Of a stretch of 42,622 nt of DNA, positions 37,117 through 42,622 are shown piece by piece. A program made the position numbers and the translations under genes. Every line of letters begins with the position of its first letter. The first letter of the stretch is position 1. The notes beneath the pieces are model-generated. The model did no database searches and was not told where the DNA came from. It saw nothing but the letters and a program-made list of their open reading frames with translations. This DNA is from a virus: positions 1-42,622 of the IMG/VR virus record IMGVR_UViG_3300029787_000073; one strand, given 5' to 3'.

Positions 37117-38559
37117 TTAGATAACGAACACGCGCGGTCCCCCTCGCGAACGCGAGAGACAAAGAAAGAACGCATCAGCGTGGTCAGGTGATGATCCGTA
37201 GCGCGCGCGGATCTTGTCTTTAGCTTCCATCTTCAGGAAGCCGCGCTCATTGTATTCGTAGTTCGTCCAGCCGAGTTGTCTCCAAAGTGTTCTCTTCCAT
37301 TCGCGCGGTACGCAAAGGTGTCCGTTCATCAAAGCCATGCGTCCGACCCAATGAAGTTCGGCGCGACGATTCAACAGCTTCATGTCATGACCTAAGAGCC
37401 ATGCCCAGTCGCTGATAGCTTTTGAACCGAAGTCGACAGCGTCTGCGATGAAGCCTTCCTCTCTCATGCGGTCAATGACTCCAGCGCCTAAGCCGTCGAG
37501 GTCTACATGAACTTGCCCTTCGGGAATGTTCCACTCTCGCGCCATACGCATAGCGCGCTTGGCTGTGTCCATCAGGTCATCGGATTGCCACGAAAGCATT
37601 GACTCAACTTTGCCGTCGATCATCACGCAAGCAACTGTGTAGTCGCTGCCGCTACGAGCTACGTCTAGACCCATGTGTCGACCGCGCTCTACCTCTGGTT
37701 TGTTCTCTGCGTTTTCTTCAAGCAGCCACTCGGGTATCAGTTGGTAGTCGCCGCCCTTCGGAGGGAACTTGCCAAGCACACGAACGAAGTACTGCGGACT
37801 GTCTTCACCGTAGAAGTCTCCTTGCTCTGCGATCCAGTCACGCGAGATGATGTCAGCCGGAACGTCGTGCGCGCTGATTGAAAACCTTGCCCACTCTCCG
37901 CGCTGGTGTGATTCGTAGAACGCGCCGTCTGCCCTGTTGCCGTTTCCGATTGCTAGGACGTAGCAGTTCGGACTCGTTAGGTATCCGCGCATAGCATCCC
38001 AGATCGGGTCAGCAACACCGGACGCCTCATCGACGATGACCATCAGTCCTCCCGGTCCTCCGGGCTGTGAACCTTGCGCGTGGAAACCTTGGAAGCGTTC
38101 CTCTCTGTCAGTTGACAATCCCATCGCGTACCAGCTTGGACCGATGTCAAGTCGAGTCTGCATGAGGTCGCCTTTGAGCGAGAACCTAGCCGCGCTGTAA
38201 GCTGAACGAACTTCTCTCCAAAGCAAGTTCACCTGATGCCAAGTCGGAGCAGTCGTAACAACGATCGCGTCCGTCCGCGTCATCACAAACCAAAGCAACA
38301 GCCTCGCAGCCCATGTCGTCTTGCCAGCGCCGTTGCAACTGACCGCAGTCACTCGTTGCTTTTGAACGAGAGCTTCACCGATCTCTTTCTGCTTTGACCA
38401 AGGCTCCCAACCTAGGATGTCTTTCGCGAAGCCTACCGGATCATCGACGTACTCCGGGAACGGTGATTCAAGTTGCGTCCCCAACTTCGAGTCCAACTGC
38501 CGCCGGACCTGTGCCCAAGACCTCGCTGTCAATCCGTCGAATGACTCTTGCTGCTGCAT
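37117..38559 (-). CDS. terL: Terminase large subunit
   Basis: This is the DNA-packaging motor: an N-terminal ATPase with Walker A SCNGAGKTT (about 75-82) following LGWEPWSKQKEIGEAL, a Walker B LMVIVDEASG near 170, and a C-terminal RNase H-like nuclease with MGLDVARSGSDYT near 293 and DGLGAGVIDRM further on. It cuts concatemeric DNA and drives it into the prohead. The start is uncertain. The ATG at 38559 (AGGAAG nine bases upstream) overlaps terS by 92 bp; an ATG at 38643 would overlap by 176 bp with a weaker site, and TTG codons at 38496 or 38484 would nearly remove the overlap. All share the motifs. Confidence 0.9.
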   Translation of the reverse strand: MQQQESFDGLTARSWAQVRRQLDSKLGTQLESPFPEYVDDPVGFAKDILGWEPWSKQKEIGEALVQKQRVTAVSCNGAGKTTWAARLLLWFVMTRTDAIVVTTAPTWHQVNLLWREVRSAYSAARFSLKGDLMQTRLDIGPSWYAMGLSTDREERFQGFHAQGSQPGGPGGLMVIVDEASGVADPIWDAMRGYLTSPNCYVLAIGNGNRADGAFYESHQRGEWARFSISAHDVPADIISRDWIAEQGDFYGEDSPQYFVRVLGKFPPKGGDYQLIPEWLLEENAENKPEVERGRHMGLDVARSGSDYTVACVMIDGKVESMLSWQSDDLMDTAKRAMRMAREWNIPEGQVHVDLDGLGAGVIDRMREEGFIADAVDFGSKAISDWAWLLGHDMKLLNRRAELHWVGRMALMNGHLCVPREWKRTLWRQLGWTNYEYNERGFLKMEAKDKIRARYGSSPDHADAFFLCLSRSRGGPRVFVI

Positions 38560-39148
38560 CCTTTGGTACTTCCTCCAGTACGATATCTGCGAACCTAGCC
38601 AAGACCGCCGTAAGGTCTCGCGCGTTGAGAGCGACCGCTGCATCTAGCTTAATGCTCCAAGCCTTCTCTTGTCTTCTGGAAAGTCTCTCCGCAGCTTTCG
38701 CCATGTGATCGAGAGCTTCATCATCCTTGACCCCAGCGCGCAAAAGCTCGCCAAGCCTGTTCAACAAACGAGCCGCCTCTTCAGGATTAGCCGCTACCCG
38801 GATCCGATCAAACAGGTCAAGCGCCTGTTGCCTGAAGTCAGGAATGTCACCTTCGGCTGCTCTCTGTGCAGCGCGCTGTACTGCAACATCCAACAAGGCT
38901 AAGGTCTCGCGCAAGTCAAGCAGCGAAGGATCAGAGCGCGCCTCTTGGTAAGCCTCTCGGAACCTGCCTACACTCTGTGAGTACCTGCCGTGTTTGACAG
39001 GCGCTCCTCCAAGTCCGCCGTGGTATCGGCAAACCTTGCGACCCGGAACTACAGAACGCTTGCATCTGTCACCTGAAGTCTTGCTCTTGGCGCAGCAGCG
39101 ATTCGGTTCATCTCCGGGCTCATACGTCGTGGAAGATTGTCTAGGCAT
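38468..39148 (-). CDS. terS: Terminase small subunit (226 aa)
   Basis: The N-terminal zinc-like segment CCAKSKTSGDRCKRSVVPG followed by RKVCRYHGGLGGAP is the motif found at the start of many phage terminase small subunits (C-x2-G-x-R-C-K-R ... C-x-x-H-G-G). The remainder is helical (LRETLALLDVAVQRAAQRA; RIRVAANPEEAARLLNRL) and would form an oligomeric ring that recognises the packaging site and hands DNA to the large subunit. It lies directly downstream of a phased repeat field at 39253-39636, a candidate recognition site. The ATG at 39148 follows AGGGAATTCCTAA and overlaps the end of the preceding frame by eight bases. Confidence 0.85.
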   Translation of the reverse strand: MPRQSSTTYEPGDEPNRCCAKSKTSGDRCKRSVVPGRKVCRYHGGLGGAPVKHGRYSQSVGRFREAYQEARSDPSLLDLRETLALLDVAVQRAAQRAAEGDIPDFRQQALDLFDRIRVAANPEEAARLLNRLGELLRAGVKDDEALDHMAKAAERLSRRQEKAWSIKLDAAVALNARDLTAVLARFADIVLEEVPKDAAARVIRRIDSEVLGTGPAAVGLEVGDAT

Positions 39149-39842
39149 TTAGGAATTCCCTTTTGAATTTACTAACAAAATTAAGGCGAACAAAATAGGT
39201 AGGTAAGCTACCTACTTTTGCACGCTTCAAAAATCTTCTTCGTTGCTCGGCTCGTGCCTGACCGTGCTTCGCCGTGCTCGCTCGTGCCTTTCCGTGCCTT
39301 TCCGTGCTGGACCGTGCCAGACCGTGCCACACCGTGCTAGCGCCGTGCTGCATCGTGCTGAACCGTGCCTGATCGTGCCTGACCCTGCCGACCGTCACCC
39401 GATGAGGTCCGACTCTGTTCGGGTGAGGTCCGACTCTCGTAGACTCTCGTCGGTCGAGGTCCGACTCTCGTTCATCGACGTCCGACTCTCGTCGGAGCAG
39501 GTCCGACTCTCGTGCTTCGAGGTCCGGCTCTCGTCCGATGAGAGTCGACTCTAATCCTTTGATTTGCATTCGTAGGAAGTCTGATTGAAAGGATAATCCT
39601 TTCATTTGGATTCGTAGGAAGTCCGATTGAAAGGATATGTAAGCACTAGTGCTGCGTCGTGCTCCCTCGTGCCTACCCCTCTGACGCGCTGATATTGGCG
39701 TAACTGTCTCGTGCCGAGTCGTGCCGAATGGGGCTGATGATCGCGTCATCTGCATATCGTCGATTTGCAAATGAAAGGATTCATCCGCCTTGTGTCCGTG
39801 TCGATTGACCCGGATTCCGCGTCGATTGCCCCGGCTCCTCAC
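39141..39842 (-). CDS. Repeat-built reading frame upstream of terS (233 aa), coding status uncertain
   Basis: The frame is open through the entire repeat field. It starts at GTG (GTGA overlapping the upstream stop by four bases) and overlaps the terS start by eight, the pattern of a translationally coupled gene. Its protein is itself built of repeats: two copies of a 14-residue unit (SFQSDFLRIQMKGL), heptads of the type RESDLLR (about 97-146), and a 10-residue repeat with HGKARASTAK (151-197). Residues 1-60 are basic and unremarkable. The 10-bp repeat is not a multiple of three, which suggests selection at the DNA level, so the open frame may be incidental. No conserved domain; treat it as a doubtful gene. 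Confidence 0.4.
   Translation of the reverse strand: MRSRGNRRGIRVNRHGHKADESFHLQIDDMQMTRSSAPFGTTRHETVTPISARQRGRHEGARRSTSAYISFQSDFLRIQMKGLSFQSDFLRMQIKGLESTLIGREPDLEARESDLLRRESDVDERESDLDRRESTRVGPHPNRVGPHRVTVGRVRHDQARFSTMQHGASTVWHGLARSSTERHGKARASTAKHGQARAEQRRRFLKRAKVGSLPTYFVRLNFVSKFKREFLNA
39253..39388. repeat. Phased CGTGC repeat array, 10-bp spacing
   Basis: CGTGC occurs at 39253, 39263, 39273, 39283, 39293, 39303, 39313, 39323, 39333, 39344, 39354, 39364 and 39374, followed by a degenerate CCTGC at 39384. Thirteen exact boxes thus stand at 10-bp steps with a single 11-bp step. Two further pairs, also 10 bp apart, occur at 39658/39668 and 39710/39720. The variable five bases between boxes show that the repeat is a protein-site array rather than a recent slippage product. 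One box per helical turn puts all boxes on one face of the DNA. Confidence 0.85.
39405..39552. repeat. 21-bp direct repeat array (core AGGTCCGACTCT)
   Basis: Copies of the 12-bp core AGGTCCGACTCT start at 39405, 39426, 39457, 39478 (A-C-G variant), 39499, 39520 (GGCTCT variant) and 39541 (AGAGTCGACTCT). Steps are 21, 31, 21, 21, 21 and 21 bp; the single long step is 21 plus 10, so helical phase is kept. The copies begin 31 bp after the last box of the 10-bp array. The 21-bp step is also divisible by three and keeps both reading strands open. Confidence 0.85.
39553..39636. repeat. Tandem 42-bp duplication with inverted ends
   Basis: Two adjacent 42-bp units, 39553-39594 and 39595-39636, differ at only a few positions (CTTTGATTTGCATTCG versus CTTTCATTTGGATTCG; GAAGTCTGATTG versus GAAGTCCGATTG). 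Each begins AATCCTTT and ends AAAGGAT, so each unit is bounded by inverted repeats and can fold on itself. A degenerate third end, GATTTGCAAATGAAAGGATT, occurs near 39761. The length is twice the neighbouring 21-bp repeat. Confidence 0.8.
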
Positions 39843-40287: not shown

Positions 40288-41895
40288 TCAATGACTGTCG
40301 GTTGTCCTGTCACGCCAAGCAAACACCAGCACTTGAGGAGGGAAGAAGTCGAAGGTCTCTGCGCTGAAGTCAAGCTTCCTCGACAGGACCACATTAGGGT
40401 AAGCCGCCTCAACTCTGTCCAGTACTTCTCTCAACACAGAGAGCTTACGTTCAACATCGAACGACCACTCGAACGCTAACTTCCTGATGCGACTGAAGGG
40501 GAACGATTGCTCACAGAGCATGGGTATCTCTGCCCCTTCAATGTCCAGCTTGACACAGTCCGCACCGGACTCATCGAGCGCGTCTGAGATCCTGATGGCT
40601 GGCACTTGCACAGCAGTAGACTTGCGCCTCTCCCATTGAGTCGAGTGCCTCCACTCCTTGCCCTTCTCATCACACTTGAACAACGTCACGCTGTCCCCCT
40701 CATGTGAGTCAGGCATGATCGCTGCATGACGGATCTCGAAGGGTACACCGTTCCTGTCAAGGTTGGCTTGAGCAGCAATGTAGTTCGCTTCCTCTGCCTC
40801 GAAGCCAACGACTTCATTCACTCCAAGCCGATGAGCCCAGCAAGTGAACGCGCCGATGTTCACGCCTCCATCTAGCCAACGGTCGCCCGGATCAATGGTG
40901 AATCCCTTCTTGGGTTTCTGGTAGCCGTTGCCCTCGATGACTTCCTTCAAGGTCTTCTCATCGCTGGTCCCTGCACGACACAAGAAGGTGAGTGGAGCAT
41001 TTGCGATCTCCTTCCTATTCGGTTGGTAGATGTAATCCACCTCGCTCGATTCACCGTCCCTAACCATGCGCGCTTCAGCGTCAGTAGTCGCACTAGCCTT
41101 GGCTCTCTTAAGCTCTTCTTCGCTCGCCCCTGTATTGGCGAACCTCGCCTTGGCATACCACACGATTGTGTATCTCTTGGCATCCGGTCGCTCTGGCCTA
41201 AGAGGCGTAACGCCATGCATCAGGCTCTGTCCGTTGAAGACCGCAAGCGTCATGTCTTCGCAAGCGATGTAGCAGTCAAGCTCTGGGATGTGCAGGTAGC
41301 CACCGCTCACATTCTCCCGCATGGTTAGCATGGCTGACCATGAGCCTGATGTGTTGCCTTGGTCTTTGTGGTAGTTGAGTGGAGAGGTGTCGTTGATGAT
41401 CCCGGATGTCCACGGGCTGTCGCCTAGTCTCCAGTTGCTTGGAGTGTCCGCCATAAGCTGCAACTGCTCCTCAGCGATCTCAGGCGCATAAGTTTGTAGC
41501 TGTCTCCATGCGCTCTCGGCTGCCATGTTGAGTACAGCGGCTGCTGTTGGGTAAGCCTGATTGAAGCTAGAGATGCGCGGACCATAACGCCGCCTAGCCT
41601 CTTGAGGAGCAACGAACCCAAAGGTTCGAGAGCGATAGTCGATACCGCTAAGTCGAGCGTTGCCATCCCATGTATCGAGCTTGTCTATCCAACGCCTAAG
41701 CGCGTTTAGATTGCCTCGCTCATCTTCAGGGACAGGACAAACGAAGCCGACGATCTCATCTCCCTGAGAAGGTGATTCAGGATCGCCTACAACAAGCAAT
41801 CCCTCTTTGATGATGAGCGCTCCTTCAGGAGGAGCTTCTACAACCTCTCGCGTCTTCGCGTTAGTGCTTACGCGCTGCAGATGATGAACCTTCAT
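40288..41895 (-). CDS. Fusion of TET/JBP-like Fe(II)/2-oxoglutarate dioxygenase and FkbM-type methyltransferase
   Basis: The N-terminal half (about 110-255) has a double-stranded beta-helix dioxygenase pattern: SPLNYHKDQGN with the HxD pair His176/Asp178, SGGYLHIPELD (198-207), then FNGQSLMHGVTP with the distal His227, and KRYTIVWYAKARF with Arg241 for 2-oxoglutarate. The arrangement and the G-x-L-x-x-P strand resemble phage TET/JBP enzymes, which oxidise methyl groups of 5-methylpyrimidines in DNA. The C-terminal half (about 315-530) is FkbM-like: RWLDGGVNIGAFTC (339-352), VVGFEAEEANY, and CVKLDIEGAEIPML (447-460). FkbM enzymes methylate hydroxyls using S-adenosylmethionine. A single chain could oxidise and then cap a substrate. 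Its ATGA overlaps the ParB-like stop, so the pair is coupled. Substrate unproven; a non-DNA substrate is possible. Confidence 0.75.
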   Translation of the reverse strand: MKVHHLQRVSTNAKTREVVEAPPEGALIIKEGLLVVGDPESPSQGDEIVGFVCPVPEDERGNLNALRRWIDKLDTWDGNARLSGIDYRSRTFGFVAPQEARRRYGPRISSFNQAYPTAAAVLNMAAESAWRQLQTYAPEIAEEQLQLMADTPSNWRLGDSPWTSGIINDTSPLNYHKDQGNTSGSWSAMLTMRENVSGGYLHIPELDCYIACEDMTLAVFNGQSLMHGVTPLRPERPDAKRYTIVWYAKARFANTGASEEELKRAKASATTDAEARMVRDGESSEVDYIYQPNRKEIANAPLTFLCRAGTSDEKTLKEVIEGNGYQKPKKGFTIDPGDRWLDGGVNIGAFTCWAHRLGVNEVVGFEAEEANYIAAQANLDRNGVPFEIRHAAIMPDSHEGDSVTLFKCDEKGKEWRHSTQWERRKSTAVQVPAIRISDALDESGADCVKLDIEGAEIPMLCEQSFPFSRIRKLAFEWSFDVERKLSVLREVLDRVEAAYPNVVLSRKLDFSAETFDFFPPQVLVFAWRDRTTDSH

Positions 41896-42563
41896 GACTG
41901 CTCATCCGGCAAGACCACAAGGTTGCCCATCACTTCAGCGATCTCTTCGTTGCGAGTCATCTCTAGTAGCAGATCAGAGTTCGACTCCACGCCGAACACT
42001 TCCCTCCACTCCTTCAGCGTCTCAACGACTTCTTCATACTGCTCCATCGAAAAGGGAAAGACCAGCGAACGCAATCCACTCTGCTGCCAAGCATCCATCT
42101 GTTCAGTAACTGAATCAGACAACTCAACCCCTGCTAAGTCTGCGTTCAAGTCACTACCTCGCTCGCCTAGGATCGAAGCAACATCGCTAGGCTCAAAGCC
42201 CATCGCTTCAATGACTTCATCGCTGTCAGGCATATCGCGAAGCGATGTCAAGGTCGCCTTCAATACATCGTTGTCCCATGAAGCCAGTTCAGCAGTACGA
42301 TTGTCTGCAATCGCATACGCCGTCATCTCAGGACCAACCAAGTTAGAACGCACCGCGCTAACCTCTTCCCAATCCAAAGCGCGAGCAGCTTCAATCGTTC
42401 CGTTCCCTGCTCTAACTACGTTGTTCTCGTCAATGACGATAGGCTTCTGCTGACCGAACCGCTCAAGGCTTTGCTTGATAGCTTCTAGGTTCTTGTCTGA
42501 GTGCTTCCTAGCGTTGCTAGGGTCTAGCGTAAGTTCTTCCAGCTTGATCATCTCAGTTTGCAT
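41892..42563 (-). CDS. ParB/Srx-fold nuclease-domain protein (ParB-like)
   Basis: The 223-aa protein has a ParB N-domain: IKLEELTLDPSNARKHSDKN, AIKQSLERFGQQKPIVIDEN and VVRAGNGTIEAARAL (50-63), where AGNGT replaces the usual GERR/GxHR box, followed by MTAYAIADNRTAELASWD. The C-terminal part holds LVFPFSMEQYEEVVETLKEW, a tail often seen on phage ParB-like proteins. Phage members act as DNA-binding or DNA-modifying partners and sometimes as nucleases. The ATG at 42563 has AAAGGAGAC at the right distance; a longer frame from 42608 lacks one. The ATGA overlap with the fusion gene suggests a working pair. Upstream sequence ends at the window edge. Confidence 0.8.
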   Translation of the reverse strand: MQTEMIKLEELTLDPSNARKHSDKNLEAIKQSLERFGQQKPIVIDENNVVRAGNGTIEAARALDWEEVSAVRSNLVGPEMTAYAIADNRTAELASWDNDVLKATLTSLRDMPDSDEVIEAMGFEPSDVASILGERGSDLNADLAGVELSDSVTEQMDAWQQSGLRSLVFPFSMEQYEEVVETLKEWREVFGVESNSDLLLEMTRNEEIAEVMGNLVVLPDEQS

Positions 42564-42622
42564 CTTTGTCTCCTTTGGTTTGGGGCCATGCCCACAAGTC
42601 TTGATCATTCGAAGTCGGGCTC

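What the first reader, a model, noticed from the sequence alone, without database searches (positions are those of the whole stretch)
40288..42563. ParB-like gene coupled to a dioxygenase-methyltransferase fusion: possible new DNA (or other) modification route
Seen: one 535-aa chain with a TET/JBP-type dioxygenase pattern (His176, Asp178, His227, Arg241) and a complete FkbM-like methyltransferase pattern, translated by ATGA overlap from a ParB-like gene. Known: phage TET/JBP enzymes hydroxylate 5-methylpyrimidines, ParB-like domains occur beside such genes, and FkbM enzymes usually make O-methyl ethers. Inference: the chain may hydroxylate a methylated base and then methylate the new hydroxyl, giving a methoxymethyl-type base that resists restriction. 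No DNA cytosine methylase is visible in the window, so a methylated substrate would need another gene or the host. I am not aware of a characterised TET-FkbM fusion, but cannot search.
Basis: partly seen in the sequence, partly recalled or inferred. Interest (0 to 1): 0.85.

Follow-up and report, generated by a model that had tools for sequence, protein, structure and literature searches.

The report
Phage TET–FkbM DNA base-modifying fusion
A bacterial virus carries one protein that fuses a TET-type DNA-base hydroxylase to a methyltransferase, and the same pair, with a ParB-like gene, sits together in dozens of other phages, so these phages probably decorate their DNA bases (most likely thymine) with a methyl-capped hydroxymethyl group, a base I have not found described.

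Summary
The 535-aa ORF (40288-41895, minus strand) joins a TET/JBP oxygenase to an FkbM methyltransferase and overlaps the upstream ParB-like gene by ATGA. Profile, predicted-structure and residue tests all place the N-terminal half in TET/JBP (26 best PDB chains all TET/JBP; H176, D178, H227, R241 kept in at least 167 of 168 relatives).

The finding is wider than reported. This FkbM clade is tied to TET: 79 of the 80 best-matching IMG/VR contigs carry a TET gene, nearly always next to FkbM and ParB. Three arrangements occur (ParB-TET-FkbM, ParB-FkbM-TET, fused), in several separate branches of the TET tree, including cultured Prochlorococcus and Pelagibacter phages. FkbM takes the place that 5-hmU kinase + ADDT, or a glycosyltransferase, holds in sister ParB-TET cassettes.

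Cytosine-C5 methylases are rare (7 of 47 FkbM records; none in the window's record), so thymine is the likelier substrate, not 5-methylcytosine.

Best reading: thymine hydroxylation in DNA, then methylation of the new hydroxyl, giving 5-methoxymethyluracil. DNA-base modification is well supported; substrate and product are inferred. No TET-FkbM cassette was found described in the held open-access library (key papers not held). New variant of a known kind.

The parts
40288..41895 (-). TET/JBP-FkbM fusion gene, 535 aa
   Evidence: same fusion in L005
41044..41895 (-). N-terminal TET/JBP-type Fe(II)/2OG oxygenase region (residues 1-284)
   Evidence: Pfam; PDB profile; AF2 pLDDT mostly above 90; Foldseek/VIA
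41362..41370 (-). HxD metal motif (H176-K-D178)
   Evidence: H 167/168, D 168/168 relatives
41215..41217 (-). distal metal ligand H227
   Evidence: 167/168
41173..41175 (-). 2OG-binding R241
   Evidence: 168/168
40312..41013 (-). C-terminal FkbM-type SAM methyltransferase domain (about residues 295-528; SAM motif 340-350 WLDGGVNIGAF, KLDIEGAE 449-456, EWSFD 476-480)
   Evidence: Pfam; alignment; AF2 pLDDT 93.9, pTM 0.91; conservation
41892..41895 (-). ATGA stop/start overlap between ParB-like gene and fusion
   Evidence: sequence; overlaps of about 4 nt are typical of the cassette
41892..42563 (-). ParB-like gene (223 aa from the ATG with a Shine-Dalgarno site; 238 aa from the upstream ATG at 42608)
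   Evidence: alignment
42570..42574 (-). Shine-Dalgarno-like AGGAG before the ParB-like gene
   Evidence: sequence
37117..38643 (-). terminase large subunit, the usual downstream landmark of ParB-TET cassettes (context, not part of the system)
   Evidence: PHROG 2, E 1.4e-36

Best explanation
The ParB-like gene and the fusion form a phage DNA base-hypermodification cassette that acts on DNA after replication. The TET/JBP domain hydroxylates the 5-methyl group of a pyrimidine in DNA, most likely thymine (T to 5-hydroxymethyluracil, as in trypanosome JBP), and the FkbM domain transfers a methyl group from SAM to the new hydroxyl, giving a 5-methoxymethyl pyrimidine. The ParB-like protein probably brings the enzymes to DNA or spaces them along it. 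The capped base would shield phage DNA from host nucleases. Step estimates: nucleic-acid oxygenase of the TET/JBP type 0.9; DNA-base modification cassette 0.85; FkbM acts on the TET product 0.75; product is an O-methyl ether 0.6; substrate is thymine 0.7; ParB as a loader is a guess. Shown: family membership, intact catalytic residues, conserved gene coupling, exchange with known hypermodification enzymes. Inferred: substrate, product, purpose.
For: TET/JBP: a profile of 11 homologues finds TET2, CMD1 and NgTET1 as the best real PDB matches, though weakly (E 0.005-0.04); the model matches 26 TET/JBP chains at E 1e-9 to 1e-12, next families (AlkB and other 2OG oxygenases) about 1e-5; VIA Z 15.8-20.5 for TET/JBP against at most 14.7 for FTO. 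Coupling: 79 of 80 best FkbM contigs carry TET, 76 of those 79 also ParB in range, in orders P-T-F, P-F-T and fused; cassette genes overlap or abut; 0 of 59 FkbM loci from cellular genomes have TET or ParB. Repeated pairing: at least 8 changes of the FkbM label forced by well-supported branches of the TET tree. Same slot: kinase PF18751 0/47 FkbM records over cut-off against 19/50 TET-selected records (20/50 at E 0.001), ADDT 1/47 against 18/50, TAGT 0/47 against 9/50 (Fisher tests). Thymine: C5 methylase only 7/47 and 7/50, none in the phage genomes MED4-117 and HTVC112P, which carry TET-FkbM; sister cassettes are published as putative thymidine hypermodification systems (PMC11955845, PMC9302106). 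FkbM has no invariant Cys, so it is unlikely to be the C5 methyl writer.
Against: No biochemical data. Foldseek places the FkbM model only among generic class I methyltransferases, so acceptor and atom are not fixed. Within the 77 TET-selected loci alone FkbM exclusion is not significant, and 3 of 9 FkbM loci there also have ADDT and kinase. The contrasts ignore relatedness. One lineage (L034, L038, L040) has a C5 methylase about 2 kb upstream of ParB by position, so 5mC may be the substrate there. Conserved N181 is shared with TET2 and does not tell T from 5mC (own knowledge of TET2).
Confidence: 0.5

Rival explanations
1. Cytosine route: host or another gene makes 5mC, TET oxidises it to 5hmC, and FkbM O-methylates it to 5-methoxymethylcytosine.
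For: Solved TET relatives act on 5mC. L034, L038 and L040 have a C5 methylase about 2 kb upstream of ParB by position. TAGT-type glycosyltransferases, named for TETs, occur in sister cassettes.
Against: C5 methylase in only 7 of 47 FkbM records and absent from phages MED4-117 and HTVC112P and from the window's record; the frequency equals that of other TET records (7 of 50).
Confidence: 0.22
2. The TET domain oxidises further to a 5-carboxyl base and FkbM makes its methyl ester, or FkbM methylates some other part of the decoration.
For: TET enzymes can oxidise to carboxyl (own knowledge). ALKBH8 joins a 2OG oxygenase to a methyltransferase that makes a methyl ester on a uridine side chain (PMC4682802). 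In L103, L133, L134 and L068 FkbM accompanies ADDT, where an added amino acid could be the acceptor.
Against: FkbM-family enzymes are mostly O-methyltransferases on hydroxyls (own knowledge); sister cassettes decorate the hydroxymethyl stage (kinase, glycosyltransferase), which implies that TET stops there.
Confidence: 0.15
3. The pair modifies RNA (for example host tRNA uridines), as ALKBH8 does, rather than phage DNA.
For: Domain logic parallels ALKBH8; some relatives of the methyltransferase fold are RNA enzymes.
Against: The oxygenase is TET/JBP by fold and residues, clearly nearer than AlkB or FTO; it lies beside ParB and near terminase, in the slot of DNA hypermodification enzymes.
Confidence: 0.07
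4. FkbM is a separate moron (glycan or other methylation) that happens to be linked or fused to TET.
For: General FkbM enzymes serve sugars and polyketides (own knowledge; no tool result supports this for the present clade).
Against: 79 of 80 clade members with TET, three arrangements, two fusions, clade-specific WRxS and EWSFD motifs, no TET near 59 cellular FkbMs.
Confidence: 0.04

Closest known systems
ParB-TET-aGPT/ADDT-5hmU kinase cassettes of actinophages (Acadian group, Gordonia DR cluster, Rhodococcus phage Tonitrus)
   Same: Homologous ParB-like and TET genes in the same order, overlapping, before the terminase (PMC11955845, PMC9302106); probably the same first step on thymine.
   Different: They activate 5hmU with a kinase and attach an amino acid; the window's record has neither gene and has FkbM instead, fused to TET.
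Phage TET + C5 methylase + TET-associated glycosyltransferase cytosine pathway (from own knowledge; paper not held)
   Same: Phage TET-family oxygenase followed by an enzyme that decorates the hydroxymethyl group.
   Different: No C5 methylase and no TAGT in the window's record.
JBP1/JBP2 and base J synthesis in kinetoplastids (own knowledge)
   Same: TET/JBP oxygenase hydroxylating thymine in DNA, then capping of the hydroxyl.
   Different: The cap there is glucose added by a separate transferase; here a predicted methyl added by a fused FkbM domain.
ALKBH8 (eukaryotic tRNA)
   Same: One chain with a 2OG oxygenase and a SAM methyltransferase acting on a uridine 5-substituent (PMC4682802).
   Different: AlkB-type oxygenase, tRNA substrate, methylation before hydroxylation.
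CmoX carboxymethylcytosine cassette of Synechococcus phage S-B43 (PMC12783734)
   Same: Phage base hypermodification with a ParBc-domain gene often in the same contig.
   Different: Starts with a C5-carboxymethyltransferase, not an oxygenase.

Membership tests
TET/JBP 2OG-Fe(II) dioxygenases | Sequence profile match | tested here: inconclusive
   Tet_JBP 32.9 bits, E 4.7e-8, 2 bits under the Pfam cut-off; relative HTVC112P gp18 with the same neighbours scores 103 bits
TET/JBP 2OG-Fe(II) dioxygenases | HxD...H metal triad and 2OG Arg | tested here: met
   H176, D178, H227, R241; 167-168 of 168 relatives
TET/JBP 2OG-Fe(II) dioxygenases | Nearest solved folds are TET/JBP, not AlkB, FTO or protein hydroxylases | tested here: met
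TET/JBP 2OG-Fe(II) dioxygenases | Oxidises 5-methylpyrimidine in DNA | not testable with these tools
   needs enzyme assay
FkbM methyltransferases (PF05050) | Profile above curated cut-off | tested here: met
   30.8 against 22.7 bits
FkbM methyltransferases (PF05050) | SAM-binding fold and motifs | tested here: met
   invariant D342, G344, G348, E366, D451, E453, E456 in 91 of 91; class I MTase fold, pLDDT 94
FkbM methyltransferases (PF05050) | O-methyl transfer to a hydroxyl | not testable with these tools
   needs assay
ParB-like (ParB/Srx fold) proteins | ParB_N domain | tested here: inconclusive
   Pfam 18.5 bits, under 26.3; PHROG 620 E 3e-36
ParABS partition systems | ParA partner and parS site | not tested
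   no search made
ADDT/5hmU-kinase thymidine hypermodification | 5hmU kinase (PF18751) in the genome | tested here: not met
   none in the window's record (record may be incomplete)
ADDT/5hmU-kinase thymidine hypermodification | ADDT/aGPT transferase (PF18724) | tested here: not met
   none in the window's record (record may be incomplete)
TET-5mC-TAGT cytosine hypermodification | C5 cytosine methylase (PF00145) | tested here: not met
   none in the window's record (record may be incomplete)
TET-5mC-TAGT cytosine hypermodification | TAGT (PF20691) | tested here: not met
   none in the window's record (record may be incomplete)
ALKBH8-type fusion | AlkB-type oxygenase domain | tested here: inconclusive
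   nearest folds are TET/JBP, AlkB clearly weaker

The most novel reading that the evidence does not exclude
A widespread phage cassette (ParB, TET/JBP, FkbM), here with TET and FkbM fused, makes a DNA base not yet described: 5-methoxymethyluracil, made from thymine in two steps on the DNA, without any modified nucleotide pool, kinase or glycosyltransferase.
Probability: 0.42. Interest if true: 0.85.

Novelty: new variant of a known kind. Interest (0 to 1): 0.68.

Why it matters
It would add methyl capping to the known ways in which phages decorate 5-hydroxymethyl pyrimidines (phosphorylation and amino acids, sugars), and a new natural DNA base. It predicts a definite product in phages already in culture (Prochlorococcus phages MED4-117, MED4-184 and P-HS2, Pelagibacter phage HTVC112P), so it can be tested directly. 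Phages of two very abundant marine bacteria would then carry methyl-capped DNA. A small fused hydroxylase-methyltransferase could also be a tool for marking or protecting DNA bases.

Tried and rejected
The name 'queuine tRNA-ribosyltransferase' attached to PHROG 6059 and many RefSeq relatives: Pfam finds only Tet_JBP in three relatives tested, so a TGT reading was rejected. FkbM as the writer of 5mC: no invariant Cys in 39 aligned sequences. Fusion as an artefact: rejected by L005. My GT model was contaminated by off-frame ORFs (it hit the TET gene of the window), so its counts are not used; clusters and Pfam counts replace it. Full-length folding gave a good TET domain but a poor FkbM domain, probably because single-domain rows misaligned; FkbM was refolded alone. 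Iyer 2013 (10.1093/nar/gkt573) and two further papers on thymidine hypermodification and phage TETs, looked up by DOI from memory, are not held, so prior mention of FkbM there cannot be excluded. The paper searches found none describing a TET-FkbM cassette. No control set of TETs known to work with C5 methylases was available to calibrate the thymine argument.

Full report
OBSERVATION. The window is the first 42,622 bases of a 52,737-base virus record with siphophage genes: terminase, portal, major head, tape measure. The minus-strand ORF 40288-41895 encodes 535 aa. Pfam finds Tet_JBP at residues 133-249 (E 4.7e-8, 2 bits under the curated cut-off) and FkbM at 342-479 (above cut-off). PHROG 6059 matches 44-278 at E 6e-38. 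The upstream ParB-like gene overlaps the ATG by ATGA and has a plausible Shine-Dalgarno site at 42570-42574. An independent contig, L005, has the same fusion at 63% identity, again after a ParB-like gene and before the terminase.

IS THE N-TERMINAL HALF TET/JBP? A profile from 11 homologues, searched against PDB sequences, gives TET2, CMD1 and NgTET1 as the best real matches, at weak E-values of 0.005-0.04. The predicted structure of residues 1-282 is confident (mostly above 90). Its 26 best Foldseek matches are all TET/JBP (CMD1, CcTet, TET2, NgTET1; E 7e-12 to 3e-9); AlkB-type and other 2OG enzymes follow at about 1e-5. VIA-align gives Z 15.8-20.5 for TET/JBP and at most 14.7 for FTO. H176, D178, H227 and R241 are invariant in 11 of 11 and kept in 167-168 of 168 relatives. 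I take membership as well supported; activity is untested.

THE FkbM HALF. Folded alone it is confident (pLDDT 93.9, pTM 0.91) and is a class I SAM methyltransferase with no specific PDB neighbour. The SAM motif and KxDxEGxE residues checked are kept in 90-91 of 91 clade members; WRxS and EWSFD are clade signatures. No Cys is invariant (best column 79%), which argues against a C5-pyrimidine methylase.

THE CASSETTE IS WIDESPREAD. Of the 80 IMG/VR contigs that best match the FkbM domain, 79 also encode TET, and 76 of those have ParB in range; gene orders are ParB-TET-FkbM (23, one of them fused), ParB-FkbM-TET (53), and 3 without a detected ParB, two of them with FkbM at the contig's very start. 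Genes overlap or abut (median -4 nt for TET-FkbM and ParB-FkbM). Cultured examples: Prochlorococcus phages MED4-117, MED4-184 and P-HS2 (ParB-FkbM-TET-terminase) and Pelagibacter phage HTVC112P (ParB-TET-FkbM; its gp18 is Tet_JBP at E 1e-29). As a control, 59 FkbM loci from cellular genomes contain no TET and no ParB of this kind. On a tree of 80 TET proteins, FkbM partnership needs at least 8 changes on well-supported branches, so the pairing arose or was lost repeatedly; the window's TET and L005 group together inside a branch rich in glycosyltransferase partners. Near-duplicates and the pattern-based search (best 80 kept) limit the counts.

WHAT FkbM REPLACES. TET-selected loci show a modular slot after ParB-TET: a kinase (PF18751) with ADDT (PF18724), a TAGT-like glycosyltransferase, FkbM, or nothing recognised. 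By Pfam, the kinase is in 0 of 47 FkbM records over cut-off (one weak match) against 20 of 50 TET-selected records at E 0.001; ADDT 1 of 47 against 18 of 50; TAGT 0 of 47 against 9 of 50; Fisher p 2e-7, 2e-5, 0.003 without correction for relatedness. The 50 TET-selected records include a few that also hold FkbM. Within the 77 TET-selected loci alone FkbM exclusion is not significant and three loci hold FkbM with ADDT and kinase. So FkbM looks like an alternative decorator of the same hydroxymethyl product, occasionally combined with the amino-acid route.

THYMINE OR CYTOSINE? C5 methylase (PF00145) occurs in 7 of 47 FkbM records and 7 of 50 TET-selected records, not in the window's record, MED4-117 or HTVC112P. 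The kinase/ADDT sister cassettes have been called thymidine hypermodification or nucleotide-modification systems by their annotators (PMC11955845, PMC9302106). Thymine, which needs no prior methylase, is therefore the simpler substrate. Against a universal answer, the related contigs L034, L038 and L040 have a C5 methylase about 2 kb upstream of ParB (positions; circular wrap assumed for L040). Host methylation cannot be excluded.

MECHANISM. Best reading: TET hydroxylates the methyl of T in DNA; FkbM methylates the hydroxyl to 5-methoxymethyluracil; the fusion passes the product between domains; ParB guides the enzymes on DNA. Steps after family assignment are inference. Rivals are the 5mC route, a methyl ester of an over-oxidised base (ALKBH8 gives a chemical parallel), RNA modification, and accidental linkage.

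NOVELTY. Phage TET cassettes with ParB, glycosyltransferases, kinases and ADDT are known or named in databases and papers; ParB-like genes also sit with the CmoX base-modification genes (PMC12783734). I found no paper in the held library that joins TET and FkbM, but the main TET/JBP genomics papers are not held. I file it as a new variant of a known kind, with an untested but specific and novel predicted base.

Noticed in passing
L004:807-1670 (Reprobate gp2), L003:8669-9454, L013 gp2 and other PHROG 6059 members: TET/JBP-like oxygenases are labelled 'queuine tRNA-ribosyltransferase' in PHROG 6059 and RefSeq; Pfam finds only Tet_JBP in the relatives tested.
   Followed up: yes
L003:7330-7971 and L014:5091-5999: Cyanophage ParB-like gene is annotated 'DNA methylase' and the HTVC112P TET gene 'DnaJ chaperone/SNF2 repair protein'; Pfam says ParB_N and Tet_JBP.
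   Followed up: yes
L103:5409-9527, L133:5234-9400, L134:117-4283, L068:3867-7944: Larger cassettes combine ParB, TET, ADDT, FkbM and a P-loop kinase (weak kinase match in L068), suggesting a methylated amino-acid-linked base.
   Followed up: partly
L095:6741-7547 and about 21 other TET-selected loci: ParB-TET followed by a TAGT-like glycosyltransferase, mostly without a C5 methylase in the record: possibly a phage counterpart of base J (glucosylated 5hmU).
   Followed up: partly
L142:7423-7905 and four similar loci: A GNAT acetyltransferase and a DAO-type FAD oxidoreductase follow ADDT in some TET cassettes, implying further processing of the attached amino acid.
   Followed up: no
L034, L038, L040: A C5 cytosine methylase lies about 2 kb upstream of ParB-TET-FkbM in this lineage, which may use 5mC.
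   Followed up: no
record position just beyond 42622 (L002 about 806-870): A short run of N sits just past the window end, upstream of the ParB-like gene; L005 has a gene similar to the one beyond it (188 aa, RuvC-like by eye) directly upstream of ParB, so the scaffold join looks right.
   Followed up: partly
window 39141-39842: GTG-start ORF with repeated RESD- and RHGKAR-like segments between the cassette and the terminase; only chance-level Pfam matches; possibly a repeat tract rather than a gene.
   Followed up: no
L015:5959-8056: A more distant phage FkbM gene sits between a DNA polymerase and a HaeIII-type C5 methylase, without a recognisable TET gene.
   Followed up: no
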